Shown here: positions 2,321 to 56,401 of the stretch, piece by piece | Position numbering within the stretch: position 1 is the first letter of the stretch | How the letters are laid out: each line of letters begins with the position of its first letter | Assembly: GCA_025403435.1 (NCBI GenBank) | Contig: CM046353.1 | Location: 19,679,875 to 19,743,874, forward strand | DNA from: Artocarpus heterophyllus | Lineage: Eukaryota > Streptophyta > Magnoliopsida > Rosales > Moraceae | Length of the DNA: 64,000 nt | Direction: 5' to 3' | Made by a program: the position numbers and the translations under genes | Notes under the pieces: generated by a model | Database searches by the model: none | Told to the model about the DNA's origin: nothing | The model's input: only the letters and a program-made list of their open reading frames with translations

Positions 2321-2573
2321 CTCGGTCGGCAAGTTGATCTGGGTGATCGGCCTGCCGGTCATGACCCATCGGCCTACCGATTATGCAGATCGGCCTACCG
2401 ACTCATGAAAGATCGGCCTGCCAAACTAAAAGTTTGGCCTGGTTTCATGAGTCGGCCTGCCACCAGAGCCTCCTGATTTCTACCCCGCTGATGGCCTACT
2501 GAACCTCACGTCTGGCCTGCCAATCTACAACCATCAGCCTGCCGAACTGGTGGGTTTGGCATGCCGACCAAGC
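2321..2573 (-). repeat. 22-bp palindromic-core repeat array in C2 leader
   Basis: Degenerate copies of TCGGCCTGCCGA (plus-strand reading) recur about every 22 bp. The GGCC of successive units starts at 2349, 2371, 2392, 2415, 2436 and 2454, and more diverged units follow to 2573. It is the reverse-strand counterpart of the array in C1 at 17837-18070. The last spacing, 18 bp, shows a small deletion. Confidence 0.85.
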
Positions 2574-6544: not shown

Positions 6545-8005
6545 TGTCACGCCCCGGAGTACGGAAGGTGACGTGGCGGAATATTTAGGTTAATTAAAAG
6601 AGGATTTAATTGAAATTAAGAGTTTAAAAATCCAATTAAGCAAGAAATAAAGAGATTTTCCACCACATTTGATAAACGAATTTATAAATTTATAAATATT
6701 AAGCAAATAATAATAATTAAATAAAAACCGCGAATATGGGTTCCACAACCCACAACTTGTGCACACACATGGTTCTGACAATATCATAATACAGTTACAG
6801 TCCAAGTACAAATAAAGTTAAGTCTTACATGCCTTGATTAAATAATACCGAATATAAATAAATTCTCCTATTGCTCCTGAGTTCGGTCTGAAGAATCTTC
6901 TCCAAACCTAGAGGGGAAACCACCTAGAGGGGGGAATTTAAAACAGATAAAACGTGAGCGAAAGGCTCAGTAGGACTAAGTTTTATAAAATAATTTAATG
7001 CAAAGAAACATAGCATTATTAGAAGTTATTCAAAAGGACACTTAAATAAATAATTAAATAAATAAATAAATACTTTGAGTAGAACCGTTCTGGCACAGAA
7101 CAGTCTACTCGTCAAATCAAAACACCATTTCGCTTTTACCTAGGCAAACCATGATATCACCACCGTAGTGGCCCAGCTGGGTTTCGGGACCTGCCCCCAA
7201 GGTCGATCGCTACACGACCCGATCTCTAATATGGCATCATGCCTATGTGTTTATTATCATTATCATTCAAAACCCAATTACCGAGTGTTGTCAATTACAT
7301 TCATTATGAAATTCATTTCATAATCACGGTATATTAAAATATAACCGATAAAACCATTTTCAAACAACCGTTGAAAACATTTTGATAGAAATCATTTTCA
7401 AAGCCAAATCATTTTGAAATTAGGCTACCAAGGAAACAGGATAGAAGTCCTACCTCAATACTCGTGCCGGTACCCCACACCGTAATCCCGGTCCGCTATA
7501 CGTTAGCTCCACGGAACCACGAACGATCCTCGAATCGAAGCTTCAATCCACGATTTCGGTTGCCGAATCACGTCCCCGAGCTTCCTCCTCGCTAACCCGA
7601 AGCTTGGATTCGAATGTGGTTTCAAAATTTTTGAAAGAGATTGAAAGAGAGAGGGGCTGCCGAGAGAGAGAGGAAAGAGAGAGAGAGGTGCGTGAGTATG
7701 AGGAGAGAGAGAGAGGAGAAGGAAATAAATAGGGAAAATCAGTGGGCGGTTTTACTGTGCGAAAACCATGTGCCGCTCACGGTTTTGCAAAACGGAGTAT
7801 TTTTAACATTTTACAAATTGTGGTGTTTTAAAACTCAAAACATCATTTTAAAACAATAAGAAATATTTTGGATTCATCAATTTAACAAAACAACCAAAAT
7901 TCAAAATCCAACCAAATAATCTAATAAATGTTAAAACGTTATTTATGGCACATTAATTCATCATTTACATTTACCTTAACATTAAATAAATTTCGGGACG
8001 TTACA
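6545..8005 (-). repeat. 5' LTR of Gypsy G1
   Basis: On the minus strand it starts TGTAACGTCCC at 8005 and ends GTGACA at 6545, the standard TG...CA ends. It is 1461 bp long. A GA-rich tract at about 7630-7725 (CT-rich in sense), next to a TATA-like CTATTTATT, is the likely core promoter and transcript start region; the same arrangement is seen in G2 and G3. No array of the 22-bp repeat is visible in this LTR. Confidence 0.9.
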
Positions 8006-12106: not shown

Positions 12107-13313
12107 CTTGGATGGTAAGTTTTCTAATGGTGAGATGATGGAATGTAAGATAAAAATAATTGGTAAGGAAAGATGGAATTTATCCTTAAGCCGATTATGA
12201 AAATCCTAAGGGGATGCGACACATCATGATATGTTGTGGACACTTAGCTAATTTAGAGCTTCGTAATTTTATATAGTTTGAGAGTATAGTTTTAAGCTTT
12301 TAGTGGAGTAGTGTTAGAGTTAATAATTATAAAATGTGTATCTAGGATATTATATTTTACAATTATTGGAGGTTGAACTATATAAGTCCATTAAGTTCCT
12401 TTTGCTAGCTCATAATAAATCCTGTAACGATACAACATGCTTTTATAATAAATTTGTGACTTATATTAAATTATTATATTGGTTGAAATTTAATAGGATC
12501 ATATAATTCTTGTTTGTTTATCTGTTGAATTAATTTATTATAAATTAAAAATTAATTTAGCGTAAACTTGTTGAATTATCAAAAATATTTATTTTCCTAG
12601 AGATTATCTAGATATGACTATTTTAATTAGATAACTTCTCTATTGGGTTATTTGAATTAAAATTGAGGTTCTATCCAAAGAATCTTGAGTGAAAAATAAA
12701 AGATTCTTAGGGTTCATATTATCATAAGTTCGACAGGCTGATCAGTTAGTTTGGCCTGCTGATGGAGCACGTTCGGCAAACCAATCAATTAGTTCAGCTT
12801 GCCAATCTAATGATAATTTAATAATGTGTTTTTTATGCAATTTTATTAGAAATTCATCCATATTTGAATTTTTGAGGCCTTATCTGATAATGACCAACCT
12901 TGGGGATGACCTTTTTAAATAGGAAGTGAGTTTTCTAAGTTATTTAGATCAGTTGAGAAGTTAAGAGTAAGTACTCTTGTATTAGATACTCTGAAACTCC
13001 CTAAGAGCCATTGTTCACAATCACGAACCTTTGCTTTGGATCTTCTCAATTGATTGGAAAGAGAGTACCGGTGGAAGAGCAGTACGACTTATACCCACAC
13101 ATATTTTGGTCGTGGATAAAGAATAGCAAAGAAGACCAATTGGTTGAAGCTTTTTTGGAACGTTCCTCTCTTCACAGATTGTAGGAGCTCTTCAGCAAAC
13201 AAAGGTTAGTAATATCTGGTTAATTTATGTATATAGCATGTCAAACTTGTGTTCTAGAAAATCCTCTTATTTAAAAAAATTTAAAATTCTATTGCGTACA
13301 TGTTTTTCCAACA
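12107..13313 (+). repeat. Truncated Copia LTR (B1), 3' part only
   Basis: From CCTTGGATGGTAAG to TTTTTCCAACA it follows the second half of the C1 LTR (about 16025-17318), including the downstream signal GGTTGGAAAGAGAGT at about 13055. The first 0.7 kb is missing. Diverged units of the 22-bp repeat lie at about 12730-12810. No primer-binding site follows; Gypsy G5 sequence begins at once. It is closest to B2 (25425-27415), for example in the shared ATTATAAAATGTGTATCT. Confidence 0.82.
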
Positions 13314-15334: not shown

Positions 15335-16715
15335 TGTTAGACATGTATGCCCTAAGGAGTAAAAATGTAATAAGTTTTTGGAGACATTTTTATCAATAAA
15401 TAATTTATTTATTGTTTATATACCAAATCTTGTCCCCTTTATGTTCATCTTTGTTGAATGTATGTTAAGCAAACAAAAGTCTAAGACTGTCGGTCTAAAC
15501 CTTAAGAATTGGGCATATGATGGACAAATTATGCAGGAGACACGATTCTTAAGGTAATGGTCTAAATCGTAAGATCCACAATCGAGGGAATAATGTTGGG
15601 TACTTTATTCATGTAAAAATTATTATGTTGTCTATATCCCAATTGGGAGATGGTTTGTCTTGACCATCGGAGGTGGACTCCGTGAATAGAAACATTAGCA
15701 CGTTGTCATAGGTGACAATGTGTTGGATCGGGACTGAAAGTGAATTGATTTGGATTGTATCTTAATCTTGAGATGAATAGTGGGTCTGTTGTCTTGACTT
15801 GTATCTTTTGATATACCAAAGGGTGACACCCACATCTTAATAGTGGTATGCATGCCGGTACGTTGGAGGCATGACTCTTAATAGCGTAGACGTGTTATTC
15901 ATAGATATGGAATCCATAGCTCCTCTTTAGGAGTAGTGATATCCTCTTATATGCGTTATCTTGTAATTGAAAAACTAGAGCACTCAACCATTTGGATACA
16001 TAGGTGTAACCGAATGGGATGCTGTCTTTGGATGGTAAGTTTTTCGATGGTGAGATAATAGAACGTAAGATAAAAATAATCAGGAAGGTAAGACAGAACT
16101 TGTCCTTAAGTCGATCATGGATTATCATATGGGATACAATACACTATGATATGTCATGGAGACTTAGCTATACGGGCTTCGTAATTCTATGTAGTTCAAG
16201 AGTGTAGCTCCAAGCTTTTAGTGGAGTAGTGTTGGAGTTGATAATTATGAAATGTATATTTGGGATATTGGGTTTCATAATTATCGGGAGCTTGTACTAT
16301 ATAGGTCCATTTGGTTCCCTTTGCTAGCTCACAAAATCCTGTAATGATACGGTGTGCTTTTCCAATAATTGGTGACTTATGTTAGATTTATTAGATTGGT
16401 TGAAATTAGGAAGAATCAAATAATTCATGTCCGTTTATCGGTTGAATTAATTTTGTGATAAAATTAATTCAAGATAAACTTGTTGAATTATTGGGATCGG
16501 ATAATTCTTGTATGTTTATCGGTTGATTTAATTTTTTTGATAAATTAGATCCAGATAAGCTTGTAGAATTATTAGGAATTCATTTATTTTCCTAGAGATT
16601 ATCTAGATAAAGTTGTTTTAATTAGATAACTTTTCTATTGTGTTATTTGAATTAAAACTAAGACTTTATCCTATAGAATCTCAGGTGGAAAATAAAAGAT
16701 TCGCTAAGCTTTTTA

Positions 16716-16802
16716 TTCGACAGTTCGGCATGCGGATCCACGTGTTTGGCCTGTCGATGGGCGTGTTCAGCTTACCAATTATGCAGTTTGGCCTGCTGAT
16801 GA
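16716..16802 (+). repeat. Four-unit 21-bp repeat in C1 5' LTR
   Basis: The core (GGCA, GGCC, AGCT, GGCC) of successive units starts at 16727, 16748, 16769 and 16790, a strict 21-bp period. The matching site in the 3' LTR (24401-24450) is shorter by exactly 42 bp, which is two units. Confidence 0.85.
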
Positions 16803-16918
16803 GCGAAGGATAAGATCACGTATTTTTACGCGGATCTTATCAGATATTGATCCGAATTTGATTCTGATTCAAATTTTTTAGCCCTAATCTAATAAGGGCT
16901 GACCCTAGACCCTACCTC

Positions 16919-16926
16919 TATAAATA
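16919..16926 (+). promoter_or_regulatory. TATA box of C1 5' LTR
   Basis: TATAAATA in CCTCTATAAATAGGGAG is conserved at the same place in the 3' LTR (24564-24571). In the solo LTR it is TATAAAAA (62059-62066). It lies about 400 bp before the LTR end and is the likely promoter of the element transcript. Confidence 0.75.
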
Positions 16927-17320
16927 GGGAGTAAGTCACATAAGTTATTCAGATCAATTGAGAGATTAAGAGTGATACTCTGCTAGTGAGAATCTGAAAA
17001 CTCCCTGAGAGCTCTTGTTCATAAATCATGAACACTTGCTTTGGGTTCTCTCAATTGGTTGGAAGGAGAGTCACCTGGTGGAAGAGCTATACGTGTGAGC
17101 CCACACTCACTCCGATAGTGGATAGAGAATAGCAAAGAAGACCAGTTGGTTGAGGCTCTTCTGGAATGTTACTTCTCTTCACTGATTGTAGGAGCTTTTT
17201 AGCATACAAAGATTAGTAAGATATGGTTAATTTATGTATATAGTATGTCAAACTTGTGTTTTAGAAAATACTCTGATATAAAATTTTTAAAATTCTATTG
17301 CATAGTATTTTTTCAACAAT

Positions 17321-17334
17321 TGGTATCAGAGACC
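17321..17334 (+). other. Primer-binding site of C1
   Basis: TGGTATCAGAGACC starts two bases after the LTR. It matches the initiator methionine tRNA 3' end over TGGTATCAGAG. Confidence 0.88.
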
Positions 17335-17836
17335 GATTTTTATATAAATTTACGAGTTTGTGATCATACTATATGTATAATTTTTTTGATCTTAATCTCT
17401 CCTACGCTTGAATTTAATTTTATAGAAAGTTGGCACTCTAGGTCTCTATATATTATATATATTGTCATGGATTATGTGGTGAATATTTATTAATTAATTA
17501 TGGTTGATTAAATAGTTATTTAATTATTTATTAATTAATTAATTTATACCGGTTATGGTTTCTTAGAGGTTAGAATGTGTATCTAGGTTTTTCATATAAT
17601 TGGATGGCGGACTATCATCACCATCTATGAATTCTTATTTATTTTTAAATTTGTAAGAATCTTGTAATTAAATAATTATTCGGAGAAGACTGATCTAGAA
17701 AGCGGATCTAGAAGAATGATGATAGCGCACCCAGGTATTTCTTGAGTCTCTAATTTTATGTTTTTAAATTGTTGAAAATAAAATTGATGAATTGCATTAA
17801 AAATTGTATTTTCTGGAATGGGAGATTTATGCTCGG

Positions 17837-18070
17837 TCGGCATGCCGAACCTCAAAATTTGACAGGCCGATGGTCGTAGATCGGCAGGCCAGACATGAGG
17901 TTCGGTAGGCCAACAGCGGGATGAAAATCAGGAGGCTCTGGTAGCAGGCTGAACTTTTAGTTCGGCAGGCCGATCTTTCATGAGTCAGCAGGCCGATCCT
18001 CTAGATCGACAGACCGATGGGTCGTGACCGGTAAGCCGATCACCCAGATCGGCCTCTCGACCGAGAGCTG
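17837..18070 (+). repeat. 22-bp palindromic-core repeat array in C1 leader
   Basis: There are about ten degenerate units of TTCGGCAGGCCGAA plus an 8-10 bp spacer. The second half-site (GCCGA or variant) starts at 17844, 17866, 17888, 17909, 17948, 17969, 17992, 18013 and 18035. Spacing is 21-23 bp except one double step of 39 where a unit has decayed. The arms TTCGGC and GCCGAA are perfect inverted repeats with a 2-base centre. Stops in all frames make it non-coding. Confidence 0.88.
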
Positions 18071-18984
18071 GAAATTTTTCCAGAAAAGGTGTAGTTTTCA
18101 ATACAGTTTTAATTTTGTTTTTGGGACAATTCTGATAAACATTAAATTTGGATATGACCGAAAATATGAAGTATTTGATTCATATGGGATTGAAAACTTG
18201 AAGATAGACATTACATGAAGAATGATACAGCTTGAGGATTCAAGGATGAAGAATCGATAATATGTCTCAATTATTCTCTTGTAATCTTAGTTTTCTATTC
18301 TCTAGGGTGGAACCATAATATTATGGTTATTTATTATTTTGCTTGTAGCTTGCTTGATTGCTTTACTTGTCTATATTATCATATGATTTGTCATGTATAT
18401 TGACAGCATTTCATATAGAATAGGGAGTGCCGTTCATATTAAAATTGTTCATGTATGATCTTAAAATAAAACCTTGATTTCAAAAGATTAAGTGGGAGAA
18501 GGTTTTTGAAGAGAGGACCTAAGGCCTCCATCGTTGGTCCATAGGCGGAACATGGTGGTCCCGACCCTTAGGAAGGGATTTTTATCATGTACTAGATTGG
18601 ATCTCTGAGAGGATAATGCATTTTAGCATGATTTATGGTTGTACACCCCTAGGTGGTGATTATAAATCATGGATAAAATATTGAAATGATGGTTATATAC
18701 TCACATTAATTTTATTATAAACCTCCCCTAGGAGCTTTAATGGCCAAAGAAACGATTATTAATATATGCTGAATCATACGGGTCTTAGATGGCATAAATT
18801 AATAAGGAGGGCATCTGTGTTCCTAATTGAATTTGGCATGACTCCTCGAGGAGCTTGTTGAATTCTGAGTTGGGAATTATCGTTGTAAGGTTGTGATATT
18901 TTTAAGGTTTTGACACATAAACACATTTGTATTTTTTTACATGATTGTGTTATCTTACTAATTTATTGTTATATGTTTGCTTAT

Positions 18985-19857
18985 GTTTGGTATATGATTC
19001 TTTATTGTAGATTAAAAATATCTAAAAACGCTTTATCTTTGATACTTGACAAAAACCTATTAATCGGAGAGAATTATAATGATTGGAAATGGAACCTGGA
19101 TATTGTCTTTTCCTTTAAGAAACTGAAATATGTACTGACAACCCCTTGTCCTCCCGAGCCTATGGGAGACTAAACTAATAAGCAATTCCAAGCATATGAT
19201 CACTGGAAAGATGCTAATGATCAAGCCCGCTGCTATGTTATGGCTAACATGAATAACGTGCTACAGGCTCAACATCAAGATTATGAGACTGCGAAGCAGA
19301 TGTTAGATAATCTTGAGGATATGTTTGGAGGCCAAGCCATAACAAAGCAGCAAGGGGCACTTCAAAAACTTCTTAACTATAAGTAGAGGCCGAGGACATC
19401 TATAAAGGAGCACATGATGTTGGTCATGGCTTACCTCGTTGAGGCTCAAACCAATGGAGCCGACATTGAAGCTGAAACTCAAATGACTATGGTCTTTGAG
19501 ACTCTGTTAAAGGAATTTATTCCATTTAGAGCTACTTTTAATTTAAGCAATAGACGGGATATGACCTTAACACAATTATGAAACGGTTACAGGAGTTTGA
19601 ACTACTGATAAGGGAGTCTCCTATGGGTGGAGAGGCCAACATGGTAGCTGCTTCTGGTTCCAATCACAACTCTATGAATGGAAAGAAGCAAAGGGCCAAG
19701 AATGGGAAGTCTTCTATTCCTGGTAGCACCAAGAGCAAGAAAAAGAAGAAGAAGAACCCAAAGAAGCTTAAGTGCTTCTTCTGTGGGAAGGTCGGACATA
19801 TGAAGAAGCATTGCAAGGACTTCCTTTCCAAAGGAGGTAGGTGTCATCTTTTGTATT
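18985..19857 (+). pseudogene. Copia gag (C1), with internal stops
   Basis: Readable blocks are ENYNDWKWNLDIVFSFKKL at about 19070-19125, WKDANDQARCYVMANMNNV (19205-19260), NLEDMFGGQAITKQQGALQKL (19310-19375) and SIKEHMMLVMAYLVEAQTNG (19396-19460). A frame change near 19575 leads to the lysine-rich nucleocapsid with zinc knuckle CFFCGKVGHMKKHC at about 19773-19815 (CX2CX4HX4C complete). Stops at about 19171 and 19384 break the chain. The TAG at 19384-19386 is CAG in C2. No convincing start codon is preserved. Gag packages the element RNA. Confidence 0.88.
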
Positions 19858-21178
19858 TAGAAACTTGTTTGGTTGAGGAATCTAGTGACATTTGGGTCAT
19901 AGATTCTAGTGCAACTAATCATGTTTATGTTTCTCTGTAGGGGTTCAAAGAAACGAAAAGGCTGTTACATGAAGACTTCACGCTTCGGATGGACGATAGA
20001 TCCTTGGTCTCAGGGGAAGCAGTGGGAGACATCCATTTTTATTTTGATAATTATAGGAATTTATTTTTGCAAGATTGTTTTTATGTTCCTAAATTTAAAA
20101 GGAATTTAATTTTTGTAGCTTGTTTATTCAAAGACTCCTATTTAGTTTCTTTTAATGATAAAGTGGTGATTCGTAAAAACAAATCTTTTATCTGTTCTAG
20201 ATGGATGCAAAATAATCTATATTTTATCAAACCTAAGATGGACTTATTGCTTAATGTTGAGATGAATGATAATAACTCTAAAAGACTTAAAACTTCTCAC
20301 TCTAATAAGACTTATCTTTGGCATTTGCGCCTTGGTCACATTAACCTGAATAGGATTCAAAGGATGGTAAGGGATGGACCTTTAAGTCACTTAAAGGTGG
20401 AATCTATACCTCAATGTGAATCTTGTTTGGAGGGGAAAATGACCAAAAGACCATTCGGGAAGGGCAATAGGGTTGAAAGGGTTCTAGAACTTGTGCATAG
20501 TGATGTTTGCGGACCGATGAACATCCAAGCACGAGGAGGGTATGAGTAGTTCGTCACTTTTATTGATGATTACTCAAAATATGGGTATACGTACCTGATG
20601 CACCACAAAAGCAAAACTTTTGACAAGTTCAGGGAGTTTCAGGTTGAAGTGGAAAAGCAATTGGTTAGACCCATAAAGGCACTTCGATTCGATCGAGGTG
20701 GAGAACACCTTTCGGATGAGTTCTTGGGACACTAATTAGAGAATGGGATTTTGTCCCATTTGACTGTGCCGGGCACTCTGCAGTAGAATGGCGTAGCGGA
20801 GAGAAGGAATAGGACTTTGTTCGACAGTCAGGTCCATGATGAGTTATTCATCATTGCCTTCATCCTTTTAGGGATATGCACTACAAACCGCATGTTATCT
20901 TTTGAACAATGTGCTTCAAAATCAGTCCCTAAAACTCCTCACGAGTTATGGATGGGTAGGAAGACATCCTTAAACCATATTCGCATATGGGGATGTCCGG
21001 CTCATGTCCTTTTTAAGGATCCAAATAAGTTGGAAGCACATTCAGAAGTTTACGTATTTGTAGGATATCCAAAAGGGACTAAAGGGGGTTATTTCTATAA
21101 CCCAAAGGAAAATAAAGTCGTGGTTTCAAGTAATGCAACTTTCCTCAAGGAGAGTTACATAGACGACTTTAAATCTTG
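19858..21178 (+). pseudogene. Copia protease and integrase region (C1)
   Basis: The protease block WVIDSSATNH (about 19893-19922) has DSS where the family active site is DSG. A TAG stop follows at 19938-19940. The GAG-pre-integrase/zinc region (PKFKRNLIFVACLF, HLRLGHINLNRIQRMV, CESCLEGKMTKRPFGK) covers 19989-20470. The integrase core has LVHSDVCGPM, FIDDYSKYGY and LRFDRGGEHLSDEF, so the DDE residues are recognisable, but stops interrupt it at about 20547, 20733 and 20784 (the last in Q-NGVAER, where the family has glutamine). The C-terminal part (KTPHELWMGRKTSLNHIRIWGC, VFVGYPKGTKGGYFYNPKENK) ends at 21178. Inactive. Confidence 0.9.
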
Positions 21179-21349
21179 AAGCAAAGTGGTTCTTGAGGAC
21201 TTAAGGAGTGATTCGATCACTCTAGAGGTTTCGAATGAAACTGTTCCGATCAGTGTAGAAAAACCAAACAAACCTGAATAACAACCTGAGGGGCTTCGCG
21301 TAGTGGGAGGATCGGGCGTCAACCTGAGAGGTATATGTTCAATGGGGAG

Positions 21350-22951
21350 GTCTTTTTGGCTGAACCGGATGAACATGACAGGGATCCTTATACTTACGCA
21401 AAAGCTATGGAGGATGTTGATTCAAAACTTTGGATAGAGGCCATGAACATTGAGATGAGGTCTATGGAGACTAATCAGGTATGGGAGCTTGTGAATCTTT
21501 CTAAAGGGGTAAAACCCATAGGGTGTAAGTGGATCTACAAGAGGAAAAGAGGAGTGGATGGAACGATTGACTAGACTAGTAGCTAAGGGTTATATGCAAA
21601 AGGAAGGAATCAATTATGAGGAAACATTTTCGCCTGTAGCCATGCTTAAGTCCATCCAGATTCTATTGTCTACAGCTGCCGCTCTTGACTACGAGATTTG
21701 ACAGATGGATGTCAAGACGGCTTTTCTGAATGGCTATCTTGATGAGTCCATTTATATGGCACAACTAGACTGGTTCAAGGTCAAGGGTCAAGAGAGTAAG
21801 GTTTATAAGCTACTAAAGTCAATTTATGGACTTAAGTAGGCTTCTCGTTCTTGGAACATAAGATTTGATCAAGTGATCAAGACTTATGGGTTCTCACAAA
21901 ATGTGGATGAGCCATGTGTTTACAAACACATTAAGGATGAGAAGGTGGTTTTTCTAATGCTTTATGTAGATGACATTCTGTTAATTGGCAATGACAATGG
22001 GGCATTGTCATCGATCAAATTATGGTTGACCAAGCAGTTTGACATAAAGGACTTGGGTAAGGCTAATTTTGTTCTCGGTATCTAGATCTTTCAGGATGAG
22101 AAGAACAAAATGATAGCTTTGTCCCAAGCCGGTTACATAGATAAAATTCTCAAGAGGTTTACAATGTAGGATTCCAAGAAAGGTGGGCAAACATCTAGGT
22201 CTGGAATTACTCTTTCTAAGAAAGACTCTCTAAAGTCTTATGAAGAAAGAGAATACATAAAGAAGGTACCTTATGCTTCGGCAGTGGGTAGTCTCATGTA
22301 TGCCATGCTTTGCACACGACCGGATATTAGTTATGCGGTCGGGATTGTAAGTCGATTTCAGCAGATCCAGGACCGAACCATTGGGTTGCGGTAAAGCATA
22401 TTTTCAAATACTTGAGAAGGACTCGAGGCTATATGCTTGTATATTCAGGTGAGGACTTGACTCCTCTAGGATATACTGACTTGGATTTTTAATCCTATCT
22501 GGATTCTAGGAAATCGACTTTGGGTTTTGTGTTTACTCTAGGCTACAGTGCCATCAGTTGGAGAAGTGTAAAGCAAGATTGCACATCAGATGCAATGATG
22601 GAGGCTGAGTATGTGGCAGCTAGTGATGCTTCAAAAGAAGCAGTGTGGCTCTGCAAGTTCCTTAGGAATCTAGAGGTAGTTCCTAGTATGGATAAGACGG
22701 TATCACTATACTGTGATAACAGTGCAGAGGTAGCTAATGCTAAGGAACCAAGATTTCATAAGAAGAGTAAGCATATTGATCAGAAGTATCATGTGATAAA
22801 GGACTTCGTTGAGGACAAGCATGTCACGATGTGCAAGATCGCATTAGAGGACAATTTAGCTGATCTATTTACACAAACACTTACTAGGAGAGTCTTCGAG
22901 AGGCATGTGGAAGCTATAGGGATGCGAGATTTGTCATATTTACTCACTTAG
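21350..22951 (+). pseudogene. Copia reverse transcriptase and RNase H (C1)
   Basis: RT starts with WIEAMNIEMRSMETNQVWELV (about 21432-21495) and runs through [29 protein letters not shown] and the catalytic LMLYVDDILLIGND at about 21957-22000, so the YVDD box is intact. TAG stops lie at 21837-21839, 22083-22085 and 22167-22169, all at positions where relatives have glutamine; C3 keeps CAG at the site matching 22167. RNase H (SVKQDCTSDAMMEAEYVAASDASKEAVWL, YCDNSAEVANAKEP, HIDQKYHVIKDFV) is open from 22520 to the TAG after LSYLLT at 22951. The order integrase-RT-RNase H is diagnostic of Copia. Confidence 0.92.
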
Positions 22952-22952
22952 T

Positions 22953-22965
22953 ACAAGTGGGAGAT
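22953..22965 (+). other. Polypurine tract of C1
   Basis: AAGTGGGAGAT directly precedes the 3' LTR. It would prime second-strand synthesis. The same tract is present in C3 (50089-50101) and, on the minus strand, in C4 (56402-56412). Confidence 0.8.
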
Positions 22966-24963
22966 TGTTAGACATGTATGCCCTAAGGAGTAAAAATGTA
23001 ATAAGTTTTTGGAGACATTTTCATCAATAAAGAATTTATTTATTGTTTAAATACCAAATCTTGTCCTTCTTGCGTTCAAATTTGTAGAACGTATGTTAAG
23101 CAAACAAAAATCTGAGACTGTCGGTCTAAACCTTAAGAATTGGGCATATGGTGGACAGATTATGCGGAAGACACGATTCTTAAGGTGATGGTTTAAATTG
23201 TAAAATCCGCAATAGAGGGAATAAAGTTGGGCACTTTATTCATCTAAAGATTGTTATGTTGTCTATATCCCTATTGGGAGATGGATTGTCTTGACCATCG
23301 GAGGTGGACTTCGTGAAAAAAAACATTAGCATGTTGTCATAGGTGACGATGTGTTGGATCGAGACATAAAGTTAATTGATTTGGATTAATAATTCTGTCC
23401 CGGCAAATCGATTCACTTTAGACAATCATTTGTATTATATCTTAATCTGGAGATGAATAGTAGACCCGTTGTCTTGACTTGTGTCTTTTAATGTACTAAA
23501 GGGTGACACCCACATCTTAATAGTGGTATGCATGCTGGTAGGTTGGAGGCATGACTCTTGATAGTGTAGACTTGTTATTCATAGATGTGGAATCCATAGC
23601 TCCTCTTTAGGAGTAGTGATATCCTCTTATATGCGTTATCCTATAATTGAAAAACTAGAGCGCTCAACCATTTGGATACATAGGTGTAACCGAATGGTAT
23701 ACTGTCTTTGGATGGTAATTATGTATCGATACACTATCATATAGGGATATTGGGTATCATAATTATCGAAAGCTTGAACCATATAGGTTCATTTGGCCGA
23801 TTATGGATTATCATATAGGGATACGATACACTATGATATGTCATGGAAACTTAGCTATGCGGGCTTCGTAATTCTATGTAGTTCAAGAGTGTAGCTCCAA
23901 GCTTTTAGTGGAGTAGCGTTGGTATTGATAATTATGAAATGTATATCTGGGATATTGGGTATCATAATTATCGAAAGCTTGAACCATATAGGTTCATTTG
24001 GCCCCCTTTGCTAGCTCACAAAATCCTATAACGATATGGTGTGCTTTTCTAATAATTGGTGACTCTTGTTAGATTTATTAAATTGGTTGAAATTCAAAAG
24101 AATCAAATAATTTATGTCCGTTTATCAGTTGAATTAATTTTGTGATAAAATCAATTCAAGATAAACTTGTTGAATTATTGGGATTGGATAATTCTTGTCT
24201 GTTTATCGGTTGATTTAATTTTTTGGATAAAATAGATCAAGATAAACTTGTAGAATTATTAGGAATTCATTTATTTTCCTAGAGATTATCTAGATAAAGT
24301 TTTTTTAATCAGATAACTTTTCTATTGAGTTATTTGAATTAAAACTGAGACTTTATCCTATAGAATCTCAGGTGAAAAATAAAATATTCGCTGAGATTTT
24401 TATTCGGCAATTTAGCATGTCGATGGGCGTGTTCAGCCTACCGATGAGCGAAGGATAAGATTACGCTTTTTTACATGGATCTTATTAGATATTTATCCGA
24501 ATTTGATTCTAATTTAAATTTTTGAGCCCTAATCTGATAAGGACTGACCCTAGACCCTACCTCTATAAATAGGGAGTAAGTCATATAAGTTATTCAGATT
24601 AATTGAGAGATTAAGAGTGATACTCTGCTAGTGAGAATCTGAAAACTCCCTAAGAGCTCTTGTTCACAAATCACGAACACTTGCTTTGGGTTCTCTCAAT
24701 TGGTTGGAAGGAGAGTCACATGGTGGAAGAGCTGTACATGTGAGACCACACTCACTCCGATCGTGGATAAAGAATAGCAAAAAAGACCAGTTGGTTGAGG
24801 CTCTTCTAGAATGTTACTTCTCTTCCCTAATTGCAGGAGCTTTTTGGCATACAAAGGTTAGTAAGATCTGGTTAATTAATGTATATAGCATGTCGAACTT
24901 GTGTTTTGAAAAATACTCTGAAATAAAATTTTAAAAATTCTGCTGTGTACTATTTTTCCAACA
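22966..24963 (+). repeat. 3' LTR of Copia C1
   Basis: It begins TGTTAGACATG, ends TTTTTCCAACA and is followed by TTAAT. It carries a 55-bp segment twice with no differences (23744-23798 and 23949-24003), which the 5' LTR has once. At 24401-24450 it lacks two 21-bp units present in the 5' LTR. Confidence 0.95.
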
Positions 24964-42255: not shown

Positions 42256-44407
42256 TGTAACACCTAAAAATTTAATTAAAGCATAATTAGTGCGTAAAAT
42301 GGTGAATTAGTGTGCCTTAATGTAATTTGAACTTAATTTAATTATTTCGTGGTCTTTTCTAATTAATCTCACTTTTAATTATTTTTATTTATTGTCTTAA
42401 ATTTTGAAACAAAACAATTTATCAAATGCTCAAAATGTCCTTCTTTAAAAACAATGTGCAGGACATGGTTTTCTTGTTAAAAACCACTCTACTCCTTTCT
42501 CTATTTAACTCTCCTTCACTCTCTCTTTTCCTCACTCACACTCTCTCTTTTTCTCTCACTGCCTTTCTCCCTCTCTTCTCTCTGTCATTTTGTTTCAAAA
42601 ATTTGAGCTAGAGCCTTAATCTTCAGTTGGAATTGGAAGCCTAGAAGTAGGTTTGAGCCTCCATAAACTTGATTCAAGGATTAATTCGAGGTTAGTTTCC
42701 TTACTTTCAAAATTTCAAATTTTTGCCTCAATTATTCCATCCTCCTTGTATGTTGAAATCTGAGTTTCTTAGAAACCTTTCAATCTAAGTTTGTAGGACT
42801 CAAATCATTATGAACCTAAGCTCGATTGGACAACATCAAGCTAAATCAAGTTTTTTCTCTTTTTTTTCCATTTTTGGCATAATTTGAAAATTTTTATGTA
42901 AAACTTGTTTAAAAGCGCTTAAATGTGTTCTAATGTGTTTTTCTATCATTTCTGAACATTATGTATGCTCTAGGAACTGAAAAACAAGTTTCAAATGAGA
43001 TTTTGAGCTCAGGGAGGCCGAGGCTCTAAATTTAGAATTTTTCAGATTTTGCTAGTTCCACAGACCGATCTTGAGCATTGCTAGGCTAGATTCATGAGTC
43101 TAGTACACCGGACTCATTTTTTCGATAGGCCGAACCTAGAGCAGTTCGACAGGGCAGTTTTGGATGGTCGATAGATCAAATAGAGCATTTTAGCAGGCCA
43201 GACTAAAGAATTTGGCAGGCGGACTGAACTTTAGAAAGATGACTGATTTTCACCGATTTTCAATATTTAAAACATAAATAGAGACTTTAACCTTATGGCA
43301 TGATTTTGTGAACCTAAATGGCACACTAAGACACCATGAGATAGCATAGTATTATAGAATACTCTAATTTAGATACTGACAGATCTAGTTTATATCTAAG
43401 GTTGTTCGTGGTTCTATGGTACTAACATATAGTAGGTTAGGACTGCAGTGTTTGAGCTCCTGTATTGGATATCGAGGTAAGACTCTAGACCTCTTTCTTT
43501 TGTAGCCATATTTTAAAAATGGTTTTTGGCCACAAAGTGATTTCTTTCAAAATGTTTTCAAAAAATGATTGAGATAAATATATTAGTTATTTTCATTAAC
43601 TATTAAATAATAAAATGGTCATAATGAATAGAAAAATGAATGTAAATGATAATACTCAGTAAGATGAGACCTAAATAATGACATAATACTAGACATGTCA
43701 TAAACATTGTTCGAAATCATATACATATGGGCATGATGTCATACTTAGAGATCAGGTCGTGTAGAGAGCGTCCTTGGGGTAGGCCTCTAAACCCAGCTGA
43801 GCCACTACGATGGTGATTCTATTGGTTTGCCCAAGACTAAATAATAAGACTGTTTCTAGATGAATACTGAATCAAATAATAAGAATGAGATCTGTGAAGT
43901 TATTTTATCATATTTTATAATTTTTGTGTTTATAATGAATTTCATATTAAAATTAAATGTTTCCAAAGCTCTAGTCCTATGAAGCCTTCTGCTCACAATT
44001 TTATTTGTTTTAAAACTTTCCCCCTTAGGTGGATTGTAGCATAGGGATGATTGGGATCCTACCGATCAGACGAGTGGACTATAGGATTTTTAGTTTAAGG
44101 TTATTTACTTACTAAATCAAGGCATATAATATTTTAATCATTCTATATTTGGATTTGGACTGTGGTTGTATTTATTATGTTGTTACTATGTGTGTGCACC
44201 ATTGTGGGTCCGGGGTCGCCTGGATCGTATTTATTGGTTCTTTTTATTTAATTTTAACCACCTTAACTTAGAAGCAATCATTTAAAAGTTTTAAAACTTA
44301 CCACATTTTTATAAATAAACTAATTATTTATTTGGTTATTTTAATTAAGATTGGTTTAATAACTTAATTAATTTGCCACGTCAACAACCAGATTGGGGAA
44401 CATGATA
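42256..44407 (+). repeat. 3' LTR of Gypsy G2
   Basis: It starts TGTAACACC after the purine tract GAGGTGGAGAGC. It ends at CATGATA, where the 5' LTR has CATGGCA, so the terminal CA is mutated. At 2152 bp it is the full-length form of this LTR; the 5' copy lacks the segment at about 42720-43335. Confidence 0.9.
43055..43230 (+). repeat. 22-bp repeat array in G2 3' LTR
   Basis: Eight or nine degenerate units of TTCGGCAGGCCGAA. The second half-site starts at 43064, 43085, 43107, 43129, 43154, 43175, 43197 and 43219, a 21-25 bp period. The sense orientation matches the Copia leader array. Confidence 0.82.
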
Positions 44408-45045: not shown

Positions 45046-46970
45046 TGTGACGCCCCGAGGTGGGGGTCAGGGAGTTTTAGGTAAAGAAGTTGAATTAAAC
45101 GAAGTAATTAAAGAAAAAGTAAATAAATATCATTGAAAATAAATAAATATCATCGGCGGTCACTGTCACATGAATGCCACGAAAGTGGGGCTGAAATGTT
45201 ATTCTCATTCACCGTCATGTGGATACTTACCACAAAGGTGGGCAGGTAATTAAAATACAATATCAAGAATAATAATACAAAAAATTGAAAATCATCGTCT
45301 ATGAGATAAATTAAAATATACTATTAACAGAGACAAAAATGACATCAACACTGGGACAAGTCGTACAGTACACGCATCATACCACAGCTCTAAAGAAAAT
45401 ACCATTTCAATCTAAAGAGTCAGGTTCGATCCTGGGCCCATCCTTCCTCCTTAACCTGGAAGTGGGATTTTAAAAACAAGAAAACGTGAGTGGAAGGCTC
45501 AGTAGGATAATTAGTTAAAAACAAGTTATTTTAAAATAGTAATAAAAAAAAGATAATTATTCATAAACCGTTCTATTTGAGATGAATCTCAAAGTCTTAA
45601 CAAATCAATAAAAACATTTACTTGAAAGCAACTTGATAAAACATCACCATATGGGTTTTGGAAATCCGAAAGGAATATCAAAATATAATTCTTCAGAATC
45701 AAAGACAAAAATCATTCTTAAAAAGAGACATTTAAGAAATAAACTTTGGCTAAACAATTTAAAGGGGCTACTAAAGAAAGGGATAGTAATATCCTACCTC
45801 ATTAAAATCCAATAACATAAGCTCCAAATAAAATCCAACATACGCTCCACATATGTTCAAAACCTTAAAAACTGTATTTAAGATCAGAAATCATATTTAA
45901 CAAATATCATTATGTTAATTTAATTATCAGTGTGCCTTTCACTCAAAATAATCATAACCCAAAATCATAATCCTTTTTGTAACATTTCAGAATCATCAAA
46001 CATTGAAAACTGTAGTAAAAACATAATTTTTCAAGTCCACAGTCGGCCTACCGAACACCATGAACTGGCCTACCGAACTGCACAGTTTGGCCTGCCAACC
46101 AACCAGGACCGGCTTGCCGAACTTTCCCATGTTCGGCCTACCGACCTGATGAATCCAACCTGCCAAACCTATGAATCTGGCCTACCGAAGATCAAGTTCG
46201 GCCTACCAAACTGGCAAAATTTGGGCACCTGAGACTTCGAGTCTCGACCTCCCCAAGCTCAAAATTTAAATTTAAAACCTGTTTTTCAATTTGCAGATCA
46301 TGAGAATCATATAGAAAGCATAGAAAATCATAGTAGAACAAGTTTAGACCATTTTCTCCAAATTTAAACTCAATTTCACCTTTGATTTAAAAATCAAAGA
46401 AAAATGTCAAAACTTGATTAAATCAAATTTTGTTCAAATAAAGCTTAGATTCGTTATAAAATAAGGCCTACAAGCTTAGATTAAACATTATCTAAGCTCA
46501 CCAAACTCCAAATTAGAAAATGCATAAAAATTCAAACCGAAAATCAAAATTTTAGAGAGAAAAAGGGCTATCCTCAAATCAACCATTTTGAAGAGGATTT
46601 TAGGCTTCAATCTTGTTTCTTGGCTTCAAATCAACGAGAATAAAGCTCGAGTTTTAAAATTTTTGCAAAGAAGAGGGAGAGGGAGATTTGCATTGAGAGA
46701 GAGAGACGGGAGGGAGCCAAGAAAAAAGGGGAAAGGAAAAGGAAAGGAAAAAGAAAAGAAAAAGAAAGGCCGAATAACATTTTCGTAAATATGGAGAAAA
46801 TGTGGGGTAAAATGTCATTTGGTATTTTTAACACTAAAATTCAAATTTTTAAATATGACAAATGCAGCAAAATCTTCAAATGACTAAAATTATCAACAAA
46901 ATTTACACTAGCATACTTAATAACTAAACTTAACATAACTAACCTTACTTTGAAATTCAGGGGTGTTACA
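45046..46970 (-). repeat. 3' LTR of the minimal element
   Basis: On the minus strand it starts TGTAACACCCC (46970) and ends GGGGCGTCACA (45046). A purine-rich tract at about 46660-46775 marks the promoter region as in other Gypsy LTRs here. The repeat array lies at 46040-46215. Confidence 0.88.
46040..46215 (-). repeat. 22-bp repeat array, the most regular copy
   Basis: Eight units; GGCC (or variant) starts at 46045, 46067, 46089, 46111, 46135, 46157, 46179 and 46200, so spacing is 22, 22, 22, 24, 22, 22 and 21 bp. The consensus on the plus strand is TTCGGCCTACCGAAC plus a 7-bp spacer. Confidence 0.9.
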
Positions 46971-47165: not shown

Positions 47166-48268
47166 TATGACGCCTCGAGGTGGGGGTCAGGGAGTTTGAG
47201 GTAAAGAAGTTGAATTAAACGAAGTAATTAAAGAAAAAGTAAATAAATATCATTGAAAATAAATAAATATCATCGGCGGTCACTGTCACATGAATGCCAC
47301 GAAAGTGGGGCTGAAATGTTATTCTCATTCACCGTCATGTGGATACTTACCACAAAGGTGGGCAGGTAATTAAAATACAATATCAAGAATAATAATACAA
47401 AAAATTGAAAATCATCGTCTCTGAGATAAATTAAAATATACTATTAACAGAGACAAAAATGACATCAACACTGGGACAAGTCGTACAGTACATGCATCAT
47501 GCCACAATTTTAAAGAAAATACCATTTCAATCCAAAGAGCCAGGTTTCGATCTTAGGCCCATCCTTCCTCCTTAACCTAGAAGTGGGATTTTAAAAATAG
47601 GAAAACGTGAGTGGAAGGCTCAGTAGGATAATTAATTAAAAACAAGTTATTTTAAAATACTAATAGAAAAACAGATAATTATTCACAAACCGTTCTATTT
47701 GAGATGAATCTCAAATCTTAACAAATCAATAAAAACACTTACTTGAAAGCATCTTGATAAAACATCACCGTACGAGTTTTGGAAATCTGAAAGGAATATC
47801 AAAATACAATTCTTTGGAATCAAAGACAGAAATCATTCTTAAAAAGAGACATTTAAGAAATAGACATTTAAGAAATAAACTTTGGCCAAACAATTTAAAA
47901 GGGCTACCAAAGAAACGGATAGTAATACCCTACTTCATTAAAATCCAATAACGTAAGCTCCAAATAAAATCCAACATACACTCCACATACATTCAAAACA
48001 TTAAAAGCTATATTTAACAAATATCATTATGTTAATTTAATTATGAGTGTGCCTTTGACTCAAAATAATCTTAATCCAAAATTATAATCCTTTTTGTAAC
48101 ATTTCAAAATCATCAAACATTGAAAACCATAGTAAAAACACAATTTTTCAAGTCCACAGTTGGCCTGCTGAACACCTTGAACTAGCCTACCGACCAACCA
48201 GGACCGGCCTGCTAAACTTTCCCAGGTTTGACCTACCGATCTGATGAATCCAACCTGCCGAACCTATG
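47166..48268 (-). repeat. 5' LTR of the minimal element, truncated
   Basis: It matches the 3' LTR from its inner edge for about 1.1 kb and stops inside the repeat array at CCTATGAA, where Copia C3 begins. It has one repeat unit fewer than the 3' LTR (exactly 22 bp, near 48192), lacks about 19 bp near 48012, and has a 14-bp duplication at about 47848-47876. Confidence 0.88.
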
Positions 48269-50101: not shown

Positions 50102-51691
50102 TGTTAGACGTGTATGCCCTAAGGAGTAAAAATGTAATATGTTTTTGGAGACATTTTTATCAATAAAGAATTTATTTATTATTTATATACCAAAACTTGT
50201 CTTCTTTATGTTCATATTTGTTGAAAGTATGTTAAGTAAACAATAGTCTGAGACTGTCGGTCTAAACCTTTAAGAATTAGGCATATGATAGATAGATTAT
50301 GCAAAAAACACGATTCTTAAGGTGACAGTCTAAATCATAAGATCTGCAGTCGCGGGAATAAAGTTGGGCGCTTTATTCATGAAAAAATTGTTATGTTGTC
50401 TATATCCCTATTGGGAGATGATTTATCTTGGCCATCGGAGGTGGACTACGCGAATATAAACATTGACATATTGTAATAGGTGACGATGTGTTGGATCAAG
50501 ACAAAAAGTGAATTGATTTGGATTAATAATTCTGTCTCAGCAAATCGATACACTTTAGACAATCATTCGTGTTATCTTAATCCTGAGATGGATAGTGGGC
50601 CTATTGTCTTAACTTGTGTCTTTTGATGTACCAAAGGGTGACACCCATATTTTAATAGTGGTACGCATATCAGTATGTTGGGGGCATGACTCTTGATAGC
50701 GTAGACCTGTTATTCATAGATGTGGAATCCATAGCTCCTCTTTAGGAGTAGTGATATCCTCTTATATGTGTTATCCTGTAATTGGAAAACTAGAGTACTC
50801 AACCATTTGGATACATAGGTGTAACCGAATAGTCTACTGTCTTTGGATGGTAAGATTTTTGATGGTGAGATAATGGAGTGTAAGTTAAAAATAATCGAGA
50901 AGGAAAGACAGAATTTTTCCTTAAGCTAACTATGGATATCCTATAGAGATACGATACACTATGATATGTCATGAAGACTTTGCTATACGCGATTCGTAAT
51001 TCTATATAGTTTGAGAGTGTAGCTCTAACCTTTTAGTGGAGTAGCGTTGGAGTTGATAATTATGAAATATGTATATGGGATATTGGCTTTCATAATTGTC
51101 GGGAGGTTTGGCAGGCCGATTTGCCAATTCATCCTACCAATCACGCAATAAAAGGATCACCTATTTTGACACGGATTTTTTTAGATATCGATTCTAATTT
51201 GATTTTGATTTGAATTTTTGAGGCCTTATTTGATAAGGACTGGCTCCTAGGCCTAACCTCTATAAAATGGGAGTGACTCCTAGGCCTAACCTCTATAAAA
51301 TGGGAGTGAGTCTCATTATTATTTAGATCAATTAAGAGATTAAGAGTAAAACTCTACTGGTAAGATTCTGAAACTCCCTGAGAGCTCTTGTTCACAAATC
51401 ACGAACACTAGCTTTGGGGTTTCTCAATTGGTTGGAAGGAGAGTCGCTTGGAGGAAAAGCTATATGTGTGAGCCCACACTCACTCCGATCGTGGATAGAG
51501 AATAGCAAAGAAGGCTAGTTGGTTGAGGTCCTTTTGGAACGTTACTTCTCTTCACTGATTGAGGAAGCTTTTTGGCATTTATAAGGTTAGTAAGATCTGG
51601 TTAATTTATGCATATAGTGTATCAAACTTGTGTTTTAAAAAATACTCCGATATAAAAAATTTTAAAATTTTGCTTCATACTATTTTTCCAA
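50102..51691 (+). repeat. 3' LTR of Copia C3
   Basis: It starts TGTTAGACGTG after the purine tract and ends TTTTTCCAAC at the G3 junction. It is about 400 bp shorter than the C1 LTR: at 51105 CGGGAG jumps directly to the repeat region TTTGGCAGGCCGATT. A 33-bp tandem duplication at 51244-51309 doubles the TATA box. Confidence 0.9.
51244..51309 (+). promoter_or_regulatory. Duplicated TATA region in C3 LTR
   Basis: CTCCTAGGCCTAACCTC followed by TATAAAATGGGAGTGA occurs twice, starting at 51244 and 51277 (33-bp period). Each copy has its own TATAAAA, at about 51261 and 51294. Confidence 0.8.
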
Positions 51692-54629: not shown

Positions 54630-56401
54630 AGAATGTCCTAGAAAAGCCTCAACCAACTAGTCTTCTTTGCTATTCTCTATTCACGATCAGAGTGTAGGTG
54701 GTTACATATCGTACAGCTTTTCCTCCTGTGATTTTCCTTCCAACCACTTGAGAAGACCTTGAGCTAGGGTTCTTGATATTAAACAATAGCTCTTAGGGAG
54801 TTTTAGAGTTTCTTAAACTAGAGTATTGACTCTATACTTCTCAAATGATCTAAATTATTGAGAAAACTCATCCCCTATTTATAGTGGTCAAATTTAGGAT
54901 TAAACCTTATTAGATTAGGCCTCAAAATTTGAGTCTGGATGAACTTCTTATAAAAAAACGCGTCAAAAAATGCGTATATAGATTATTACACGATCAACAA
55001 GACAATCTGGGAACTTACTCCATCGACAGGCCAAAGTTTCCCATCGGCCTGTTGAACTTATGATAATTTTGATCCCTAAAAATATCTTATTTTTCACCTG
55101 AGAATCTTAGATAGAGTCTCAATTTTAATTCAAATAAGCCAATAGTTATTTGATGAAAACAGTCATATCTAGATAATTCCATAGAAAATAAAATATTATC
55201 CAAATAATTCAACATGTTTATCTTGAATTAATTTACAAAATTAATTCAACTGATAAACTAACATGAATTATTAAATCCAATCTTATCGAATTTTAGCCAA
55301 TCTAAAAATTTAACATAAGTCACTAATACGTAGGAAAAACATGTCGTAATGTTACATGATTTATAATGAGCTAGCAAAAGGGACTCGATGGACATATATA
55401 GTTCAAGCTCCTATAATTATAAAATACAATATCCTAGTTATATATTTTATAATTATCAAATCTAATGCTATTCTACTAAAAACTTAGAGCTGCACTCTCA
55501 AACAATATAAAATTACGAAGCTTTAATAAGCTAACTATCTATGACATATCATAATGTGTTACATTCTCATAGGATGTTCATAATCGGCTTAGGGATAAAT
55601 TCCATTTTACCTTCCCTGATTATTTTTATCTTACATTCCATTATCACACCGTTAGAATACTTACTATACATAGATAGTATACCATTCGGTTGCACTTATG
55701 TATTCAAATGGCTGAGCGCTCTAGTCTTTTAATTATAGGATAATGCATATAAGAGAATATCATTCTCTACAAAAAGAGCTATGGCTTCTATATCTATGAA
55801 TAATAAGTCTACGTGAATCAAGAGTCATGTCTCTAATGTACTGGTATGCGTACCATCTTTAAGTCAAGATGTCACCCTTTGGTACATCAGAAAACATAAG
55901 TCAAGAATATGGTCCCATTAGTCATTTCAGGTTTAAGACATAACACATATGATTGTCTAAAGTGAATAGATTTGGACAAATAGAATTATTAACCAAATAA
56001 ATTCAACTTTTATGTCCCGATCTAATACATCATCACCTATGATAATGTATGAATGTTTCTACTCACGGAGTCCCACTCCGATGACCAAGACAATCCATCT
56101 CCTGTTAGGGATGTAGACAACATAACAATCTTAGCATGAATAAAGCGCTCAATTGTGGATCTTATGATTTAAACCATCACCTTTAAGATTTAGGTCTTCA
56201 GCGTAATTTGTCCATCATGTGCACAATTCTTAAAGGTTTAGACCGATAGTCTTAGACTTTTGTTTGCTTATCATACATTCAATAGAAATAAATACAAAGA
56301 GGACAACATTTGATATATGAATAATAGATAAACTCTTTATTGATAAAATGTCTCCAAAAACATATTACAACGTTTTACTCCTTAGGGCACTATGTCTACC
56401 A
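54630..56401 (-). repeat. 3' LTR of Copia C4, truncated
   Basis: It is collinear with the C1 LTR on the minus strand, from the start (56401) to a point about 150 bp before the normal end. Two diverged repeat-core sites lie at about 55022-55060 (CGACAGGCC and CGGCCTGTTGAAC). Confidence 0.87.

What the first reader, a model, noticed from the sequence alone, without database searches (positions are those of the whole stretch)
17837..18070. A 21-22 bp palindromic-core tandem repeat shared by Copia and Gypsy elements
The same degenerate unit, core TTCGGC-AG-GCCGAA plus a short spacer, is arrayed in the Copia leader (17837-18070, 2321-2573), the Copia LTR (16716-16802, 24401-24450, 61901-61945 and others) and the LTRs of Gypsy G2 (43055-43230), G3 (53636-53812) and the minimal element (46040-46215, 48158-48268). 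Spacing measured by eye is 21-24 bp in every case, about two turns of DNA, so cores would face the same side of the helix. The unit is G+C-rich in AT-rich surroundings and non-coding. Copia and Gypsy share no homology in these regions otherwise. Either the array spread between superfamilies or it is kept by selection, for example as binding sites for a host or element factor. Short motif arrays bound by the VANC anti-silencing proteins of VANDAL transposons are a possible parallel, by analogy only.
Basis: partly seen in the sequence, partly recalled or inferred. Interest (0 to 1): 0.78.

Follow-up and report, generated by a model that had tools for sequence, protein, structure and literature searches.

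The report
Shared palindrome arrays in plant retrotransposons
Two unrelated kinds of plant jumping gene (Copia and Gypsy) in this stretch carry rows of the same 14-letter near-palindrome about every 22 letters in their non-coding regions, most likely landing sites for one host DNA-binding protein, a feature so far described mainly for one other group of plant retrotransposons.

Summary
A 14-bp unit, TTCGGY-AG-GCCGAA, recurs at 21-24 bp steps in two Copia leaders, six of seven Copia U3 regions aligned and four of six Gypsy LTRs. The window has 23 hit pairs at 20-24 bp; 20 Markov sequences have 0 or 1 each. A matrix trained on Gypsy units alone recovers 18 of 20 Copia leader units. Copia and Gypsy share core and period; for spacers the evidence is mixed.

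The closest known thing is the CGG-CCG palindromic motif of Sirevirus LTRs, reported as Sirevirus-specific (PMC2829016). This Copia fails two Sirevirus tests (PPT octamer, linker), and the other host is Gypsy: a new variant of a known kind.

Additions: in G2 and G3 the array sits inside a ~710-bp GT...AG, intron-like segment that a related LTR lacks at the same junction, to within one base. Unit number changes by whole units between two LTRs of one insertion. 'Cores face one side of the helix' holds for U3 but fails for Gypsy.

Best mechanism: binding sites for one host regulator. Inferred, not shown. No genome-wide count was possible.

The parts
17836..18061 (+). Copia leader array C1, 10 units (14 bp), spacings 22,22,21,39,21,23,21,22,21
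   Evidence: centre AG in element sense in most leader units (15 of 20 in both copies)
2325..2568 (-). Copia leader array C2, 10 units, in a second, reversed copy of the same family, near a 100-N assembly gap (2794-2893)
15335..24963 (+). Copia element with both LTRs (15335-17318 and 22966-24963), TSD TTAAT, PBS at 17321, terminal PPT-like AGTGGGAG at 22956; RNase H-like reading frame ends at 22951, 14 bp before the 3' LTR; coding parts broken by stops
16724..16800 (+). Copia 5' LTR U3 array, 4 units at exactly 21 bp, ending 118 bp upstream of the TATA box (CTATAAATAGGG, 16918)
24411..24445 (+). Copia 3' LTR U3 array of the same insertion, 2 units (two 21-bp units fewer than the 5' LTR)
12729..12806 (+). 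U3 array of a more distant Copia LTR, 4 units
51107..51141 (+). U3 array of a Copia LTR, one strong unit and one degraded
55022..55056 (-). U3 array of a reversed Copia LTR, 2 units
61906..61940 (+). U3 array of a Copia LTR that looks solo (Gypsy-like sequence on both sides), 2 units
42691..43400 (+). Gypsy G2 3' LTR: GT...AG intron-like segment (710 bp) that contains the array
43056..43224 (+). Gypsy G2 array, 8 positions (3 poor matches), about 550 bp downstream of the TATTTA/CT-rich region at 42502
53463..54175 (-). Gypsy G3 LTR: GT...AG intron-like segment (713 bp) that contains the array
53639..53807 (-). Gypsy G3 array, 8 units, same spacing series as minimal element A (22,22,22,24,22,22,21)
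46042..46210 (-). Minimal Gypsy-like element, LTR A (45046-46970), array of 8 units
48159..48262 (-). Minimal element, LTR B array, 5 units; one whole 22-bp unit missing against LTR A, and cut where Copia-like sequence begins (about 48269)
7528..7529 (-). Gypsy G1 LTR: junction where the array-bearing segment is absent (ATTCGAG|GATCGTTCG), like a spliced form, one base longer than the G2 join

Best explanation
The arrays are clustered binding sites for one sequence-specific host protein, probably a dimer, that recognises TTCGGY-AG-GCCGAA. In the Copia LTRs the cluster lies in U3 upstream of the TATA box, the place of an enhancer. In the Copia leader and in the Gypsy LTR segment it lies downstream of the probable start of transcription, the place of an intronic enhancer or of an anti-silencing tract. 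Copia and Gypsy share the core because they use the same host factor. Units are gained and lost whole, by slippage or unequal exchange, and cores decay by C-to-T change in silenced copies. Shown: the shared core, the period, the positions, whole-unit gain or loss, and the excess of transitions in cores. Inferred: protein binding, that the protein is a host one, the start sites, and any effect on transcription.
For: A matrix from 26 of 29 Gypsy units finds 8 of 10 and 10 of 10 leader units and 13 of 14 units in five U3 arrays above the third-best score outside the arrays; one from 20 Copia leader units finds 23 of 29 Gypsy units. U3 array ends 118 bp upstream of TATA. Transversions are rarer in cores than flanks in two of four comparisons (G3-minA 3/96 against 103/464, p=1.3e-6; G2-minA 7/88 against 95/478, p=0.006), and no gap falls in core or spacer in the three G2/G3/minA comparisons, against 6-10 gaps in flanks. 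Parallels in print: Sirevirus palindromic motifs upstream of TATA; VANC motif arrays upstream and in introns.
Against: No binding, expression or methylation data. Cores as a whole are less conserved than flanks in three of five comparisons (G2-G3 0.625 against 0.779, minA-minB 0.833 against 0.935, C1-C2 0.831 against 0.892) and only slightly more in two (0.659 against 0.623; 0.677 against 0.614). The transversion deficit is absent in the two other pairs tested (p=1 and 0.56), and the two positive pairs share minA. Homogenisation of units could also keep cores alike. Gypsy cores are not in helical phase. Spacers may be partly shared (C1-minB 3, 4 and 0 of 300; C2-G3 1, 26 and 15 of 300), which a common origin would explain. 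The uniform AG orientation in transcribed arrays (23 of 26 Gypsy, 15 of 20 leader, 3 of 15 U3) is not needed for a symmetric site.
Confidence: 0.42

Rival explanations
1. Common origin without function: a minisatellite that arose once, expanded by slippage and moved between families by recombination or template switching.
For: Whole-unit changes between LTRs of one insertion: two 21-bp units in Copia, one 22-bp unit in the minimal element. Some spacer comparisons exceed controls: C1-minB (3, 4, 0 of 300), C1-minA (10 of 300 for spacer letters), C2-G3 (1 and 15 of 300); 6 of 24 tests at or below 15 of 300. Overall core conservation is not above flanks in three of five pairs.
Against: The other 18 of 24 tests are ordinary, and results disagree between the two Copia copies. 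No flanking homology accompanies the unit (no Copia-Gypsy match of 120 bp or more across the arrays). Positions recur across diverged copies. Core transversions are low in two pairs.
Confidence: 0.24
2. RNA-hairpin source: palindromic units pair with each other in the transcript, and the host cuts the double-stranded RNA into small RNAs that silence the families.
For: Three of the six leader/Gypsy arrays were folded as RNA and fold better than dinucleotide shuffles: C1 z -5.1, minimal A one long stem z -5.5, G3 z -3.1 with 2 of 200 shuffles as good. A maize paper says excess small RNAs map to clusters of palindromic motifs in Sirevirus LTRs (PMC10760457 passages).
Against: Any array of near-palindromes folds well, so the z-scores add little. 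The asymmetry of positions 6 and 9 is not what selection for pairing predicts. U3 arrays lie upstream of the TATA box. It explains a consequence rather than why elements keep the arrays.
Confidence: 0.2
3. RNA-level element function: the transcribed arrays act in splicing, dimerisation or packaging of the genomic RNA.
For: Same sense orientation in leader and Gypsy arrays but not in U3. G2 and G3 arrays lie in a GT...AG segment. Units contain YAG-G, like a 3' splice site; position 6 varies between C and T while A7, G8 and G9 are mostly kept.
Against: The same unit stands in U3, upstream of TATA, in both orientations. Units within an array are duplicates, so shared orientation may be one event.
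Confidence: 0.1

Closest known systems
Sirevirus LTR repeated motif (RM), Bousios et al. 2010, PMC2829016 (abstract, and sections 6, 9-12 and 19, read)
   Same: Short palindrome, CGG...CCG core in 12 of 13 elements, clustered in the LTR upstream of TATA, with extra clusters elsewhere in some elements.
   Different: There described as Sirevirus-specific and absent from classic Copia. Here in a Copia that lacks the Sirevirus PPT and linker, in its leader, and in Gypsy LTRs downstream of the probable start. TTCGGY-AG-GCCGAA is none of the 13 listed consensuses (Osr9, TTTTCGGAC..TCCGAAAA, is nearest to my eye).
Maize palindrome CACCGGAC-NNN-GTCCGGTG found in Copia and in Helitron elements (PMC10760457 passages)
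   Same: One palindrome in two kinds of element of one genome; linked there with cis-regulation and small RNAs.
   Different: Other sequence; Helitron rather than Gypsy; no regular array described in the passages seen.
VANC-target motif arrays of VANDAL elements (PMC5735166 passages)
   Same: Short motif in same-orientation tandem repeats, non-coding, in introns and upstream regions, changing copy number between relatives; VANC6 motifs also occur in an unrelated element (AT9TSD1).
   Different: VANC is encoded by the elements themselves (VANDALs are DNA transposons, by recall). Motifs differ (YAGTATTAY; AGTTGTCC). No such gene was seen among the six window ORFs of 150 aa or more; it was not sought elsewhere.

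Membership tests
Sirevirus repeated motif (as a motif type) | Palindromic unit with CGG...CCG core | tested here: met
   TTCGGY-AG-GCCGAA, tabulated units; imperfect at positions 6/9
Sirevirus repeated motif (as a motif type) | Clustered in the LTR a short way upstream of TATA | tested here: met
   Copia U3 array ends 118 bp before CTATAAATAGGG. Not so in Gypsy: about 550 bp downstream of TATTTA
Sirevirus repeated motif (as a motif type) | At least 8 copies per element | tested here: inconclusive
   Copia: 10 in the leader but only 2-4 per U3; Gypsy: 8 positions where complete; the paper counted linker and 3' LTR
Sirevirus (the Copia element itself) | PPT octamer AGGGGGAG at the 3' LTR, in several copies near it | tested here: not met
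   Terminal octamer AGTGGGAG (22956); AGGGGGAG absent from the + strand of 17317-22980; other AGTGGGAG at 18491, 20021 and 21302, not clustered at the LTR
Sirevirus (the Copia element itself) | Linker (0.52-3.96 kb in the paper's table) between pol and 3' LTR, sometimes with env | tested here: not met
   RNase H-like frame (named from recall; no Pfam hit) ends at 22951; 3' LTR starts at 22966
Sirevirus (the Copia element itself) | LTR/internal junction CA/ATTGG-TATCAGAGC | tested here: met
   CA|ATTGGTATCAGAGA, last base differs; also common in other Copia, by recall
Angela/BARE lineage (Copia) | Position in polyprotein phylogeny | not tested
   Likeness from recall of LTR ends and long leader; Angela = BARE-1 group per PMC6317226 passages
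Tekay/Del lineage (Gypsy) | Polyprotein phylogeny and, in most chromoviruses, a chromodomain | not tested
   Only an SH3_Tf2-1 domain in G2, LTR ends like TGTAACACC (recalled as Tekay-like), Met-type PBS in G1 and a variant in G3
VANC/VANDAL anti-silencing | Element-encoded VANC protein binding the motif | not tested
   Of six window ORFs of 150 aa or more, three have gag/pol-type Pfam domains and three none; no VANC search was made and the genome search did not complete

The most novel reading that the evidence does not exclude
Unrelated Copia and Gypsy families of one plant have converged on, or exchanged, the same array of sites for one trans-acting factor that keeps chromatin open or switches transcription on: a shared access key. 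In the Gypsy family the key is carried in an LTR intron, so that splicing before reverse transcription yields daughters without it (G1 would be such a lineage). The host or a third element could supply the factor.
Probability: 0.2. Interest if true: 0.8.

Novelty: new variant of a known kind. Interest (0 to 1): 0.52.

Why it matters
Palindromic CGG-CCG motifs were described as specific to one Copia genus. The same type of array in another Copia and in Gypsy elements of one genome, with the same core, would mean that the trait follows the host's factor rather than element ancestry. That gives a direct way to find the factor: one probe, several unrelated families. It also gives a sequence-defined place to look for small RNAs and for demethylation. 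The intron-like segment in a Gypsy LTR, if spliced, would add to the few introns known in plant LTR elements (a 2025 review names Ogre and EVADE as exceptions and notes BARE1 splicing; PMC12786077 passages).

Tried and rejected
Helical-face model: rejected for Gypsy (coherence 0.14-0.25), kept for U3.

Block transfer of a whole array between Copia and Gypsy: not settled. The first control used only one Copia copy; the second copy, added while checking this report, gave a different pattern: G3 high (1, 26, 15 of 300), minB ordinary (38, 83, 61), minA 22, 129, 78, G2 80, 204, 218. For the first copy: G2 148, 147, 161; G3 129, 156, 147; minA 10, 57, 29; minB 3, 4, 0 (spacer letters, unit order, core/spacer reassortment). 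Because of this I moved the odds a little from the binding-site reading (0.45 to 0.42) to common origin (0.20 to 0.24).

Simple CG/CHG decay as the source of the T at position 6: disfavoured, since mirror sites change less often (T6 20, A8 6, A9 4 of 55 oriented units). Units are not independent.

Relatives elsewhere: a spaced-pair pattern had 0 matches in viral contigs and 56 stretches in prokaryote genomes, 53 of them single matches, read as background (L025 with 5, L037 and L047 with 2 were not looked into). Two protein queries found no relatives in viral contigs. A protein search gave 632 hits, best 120 listed, of which three carry plant names (Xanthoceras sorbifolium, Cucumis melo twice); it did not name the window's species.

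Literature: six spelled-out forms of the unit had no hit in the held PMC library; this does not show that it is unpublished. Bousios et al. 2016 on maize palindromes is not held and is known here only through.

Full report
Observation. The window is rich in decayed LTR elements (GC 0.36) and is taken to be plant DNA from the elements it holds; the species is unknown. Three separate tabulations give consensus TTCGGCAGGCCGAA (29 Gypsy positions), ATCGGCAGGCCGAT (20 Copia leader units) and TTCGGCCTGCCGAT (15 Copia U3 units). The last is the same unit with the centre mostly read from the other strand. Against 20 Markov sequences, the window has 62 hits (8-22) and 23 pairs at 20-24 bp (0 or 1). Of the 90 orderings of the half-site letters, TTCGGC has 47 hits and the next 23.

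Same unit in Copia and Gypsy. A matrix trained on 26 of 29 Gypsy positions (three poor G2 matches dropped) finds 8 of 10 and 10 of 10 leader units and 13 of 14 units in five U3 arrays, above all but two positions outside the arrays. Trained on the Copia leaders, it finds 23 of 29 Gypsy units: G2 3 of 8, G3 7 of 8, minimal A 8 of 8, minimal B 5 of 5. Whole arrays align across superfamilies better than mononucleotide shuffles: 7 of 8 pairs beat all 300, one beat 299. When the core is kept and only spacers are shuffled, unit order changed, or cores and spacers reassorted, results are mixed. For leader C1, G2 and G3 are ordinary while minimal B is high (3, 4, 0 of 300 controls as good) and minimal A slightly so (10, 57, 29). 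For leader C2, G3 is high (1, 26, 15) and the rest are not. Six of 24 tests lie at or below 15 of 300. The core and the period are shared; a weak common origin of some spacers is neither shown nor excluded.

Element anatomy, Copia. The element at 15335-24963 has LTRs of 1984 and 1998 bp, TSD TTAAT and a Met-type PBS. Its U3 array ends 118 bp before CTATAAATAGGG. The leader array starts about 520 bp after the 5' LTR, between PBS and gag. Six of seven aligned Copia LTRs have U3 units; the one at 25421-27416 has none that I recognise. The two LTRs of this insertion, taken to be identical when it landed, now differ by two 21-bp pieces in the array (LTR identity 0.899). The element is not a Sirevirus by two tests: AGTGGGAG in place of AGGGGGAG, and no linker, the last pol-like frame ending 14 bp before the 3' LTR. 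It resembles Angela/BARE elements by recall; no tree was made.

Element anatomy, Gypsy. LTR starts are like TGTAACACC (G2, G3, minimal A, G1). In G2 a TATTTA and CT-rich region lies at 42502, and the array begins about 550 bp further on. It sits in a 710-bp segment (42691-43400) with GTTAGT at one end and TCTAAG at the other; G3 has the same at 713 bp. The G1 LTR reads across this place: ATTCGAG|GATCGTTCGTGG against ATTCGAG|...|GTTGTTCGTGG, one base longer than a clean join. This is what a spliced and re-inserted form would look like. An insertion flanked by a 5-bp repeat (AGGTT) is the alternative; no transcript was available, and in minimal A the donor place reads GATAG rather than GTTAG. 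The 5' LTR of G2 lacks its array through another deletion of about 608 bp. So four of six Gypsy LTRs aligned have the array. In the minimal element, LTR B lacks one whole 22-bp unit present in LTR A.

How cores evolve. Cores gain transitions faster than flanks in three of four tested pairs (G2-G3 p=0.0005, G3-minA 0.006, C1-C2 0.012; G2-minA 0.08), as methylated CG and CHG sites would. Transversions in cores are rare in two (G3-minA 3/96 against 103/464, p=1.3e-6; G2-minA 7/88 against 95/478, p=0.006) and not in the two others (p=1 and 0.56). The positive pairs share one sequence. Overall identity of cores is below that of flanks in three of five pairs and slightly above in two. No gap lies in core or spacer in the three G2/G3/minA comparisons, against 6, 10 and 8 in flanks; minA-minB and C1-C2 have one gap each in the array. 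This hints at past constraint and does not prove it.

Symmetry and phase. Position 6 is T in 20 of 55 oriented units, the mirror position 9 is A in 4. The centre reads AG in element sense in 23 of 26 Gypsy and 15 of 20 leader units, but in 3 of 15 U3 units. Helical phase is kept in U3 (coherence 0.96-1.00; three of the five arrays have only two units), partly in the leaders (0.79, 0.53) and not in Gypsy (0.14-0.25).

Interpretation. Position in U3, a core shared more clearly than its spacers, and known parallels favour binding sites for a host protein (0.42). Common origin without function is next (0.24). Folding of the three arrays tested as RNA is strong (z -5.1, -5.5, -3.1), but any array of palindromes would fold so; a small-RNA role is possible and not exclusive (0.2). 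An RNA-level role is less likely (0.1).

Known and new. Bousios et al. 2010 (PMC2829016, abstract and six sections read) describe palindromic repeats in 13 Sireviruses, 12 with a CGG-CCG core, upstream of TATA and of env, and absent from classic Copia. A 2023 maize paper (PMC10760457, passages) found one palindrome in both Copia and Helitrons. VANC target motifs (PMC5735166, passages) form same-orientation tandem arrays, introns included. The present case differs in host elements, location and sequence. I searched the held literature and saw, in the listings, no report of such a unit shared by Copia and Gypsy; most subscription papers are not held.

Limits. The species is unknown, the genome could not be searched, and all statements rest on one 64-kb window.

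Noticed in passing
42691-43400 (+), 53463-54175 (-), 7528-7529 (-): Intron-like GT...AG segment within Gypsy LTRs G2 and G3, absent from the G1 LTR at the same junction to within one base.
   Followed up: partly
43477-44028: A second GT...AG segment in the G2 LTR (GAG|GTAAGA ... CCCCCTTAG|G, 552 bp), with similar ends in G1 (GAG|GTAGGA, CCCTCTAG|G); it could be a second LTR intron.
   Followed up: no
17735-19010: Copia leader: donor-like CCCAG|GTATTT and acceptor-like TTATTGTAG near the start of gag, both kept in the second copy; possible leader intron that would hold the array.
   Followed up: no
51237-51309: Tandem duplication of a 33-bp piece with the TATA-like CTATAAAAT in a Copia LTR.
   Followed up: no
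16420-16577 and 24107-24264: 81-bp tandem duplication in both LTRs of the same Copia element.
   Followed up: no
45046-48271: Minimal Gypsy-like element: LTR A of 1925 bp (45046-46970) and a cut LTR B ending at 47166, with only 195 bp between them.
   Followed up: partly
16724-16800, 61906-61940: U3 spacers hold ACGT-type words (CCACGTGT, TGACGTGT) that resemble bZIP sites, by recall.
   Followed up: no
2794-2893: 100-N assembly gap at the LTR-side edge of the second Copia leader copy; the piece beyond it matches the Gypsy G2 interior, so the order there is uncertain.
   Followed up: no
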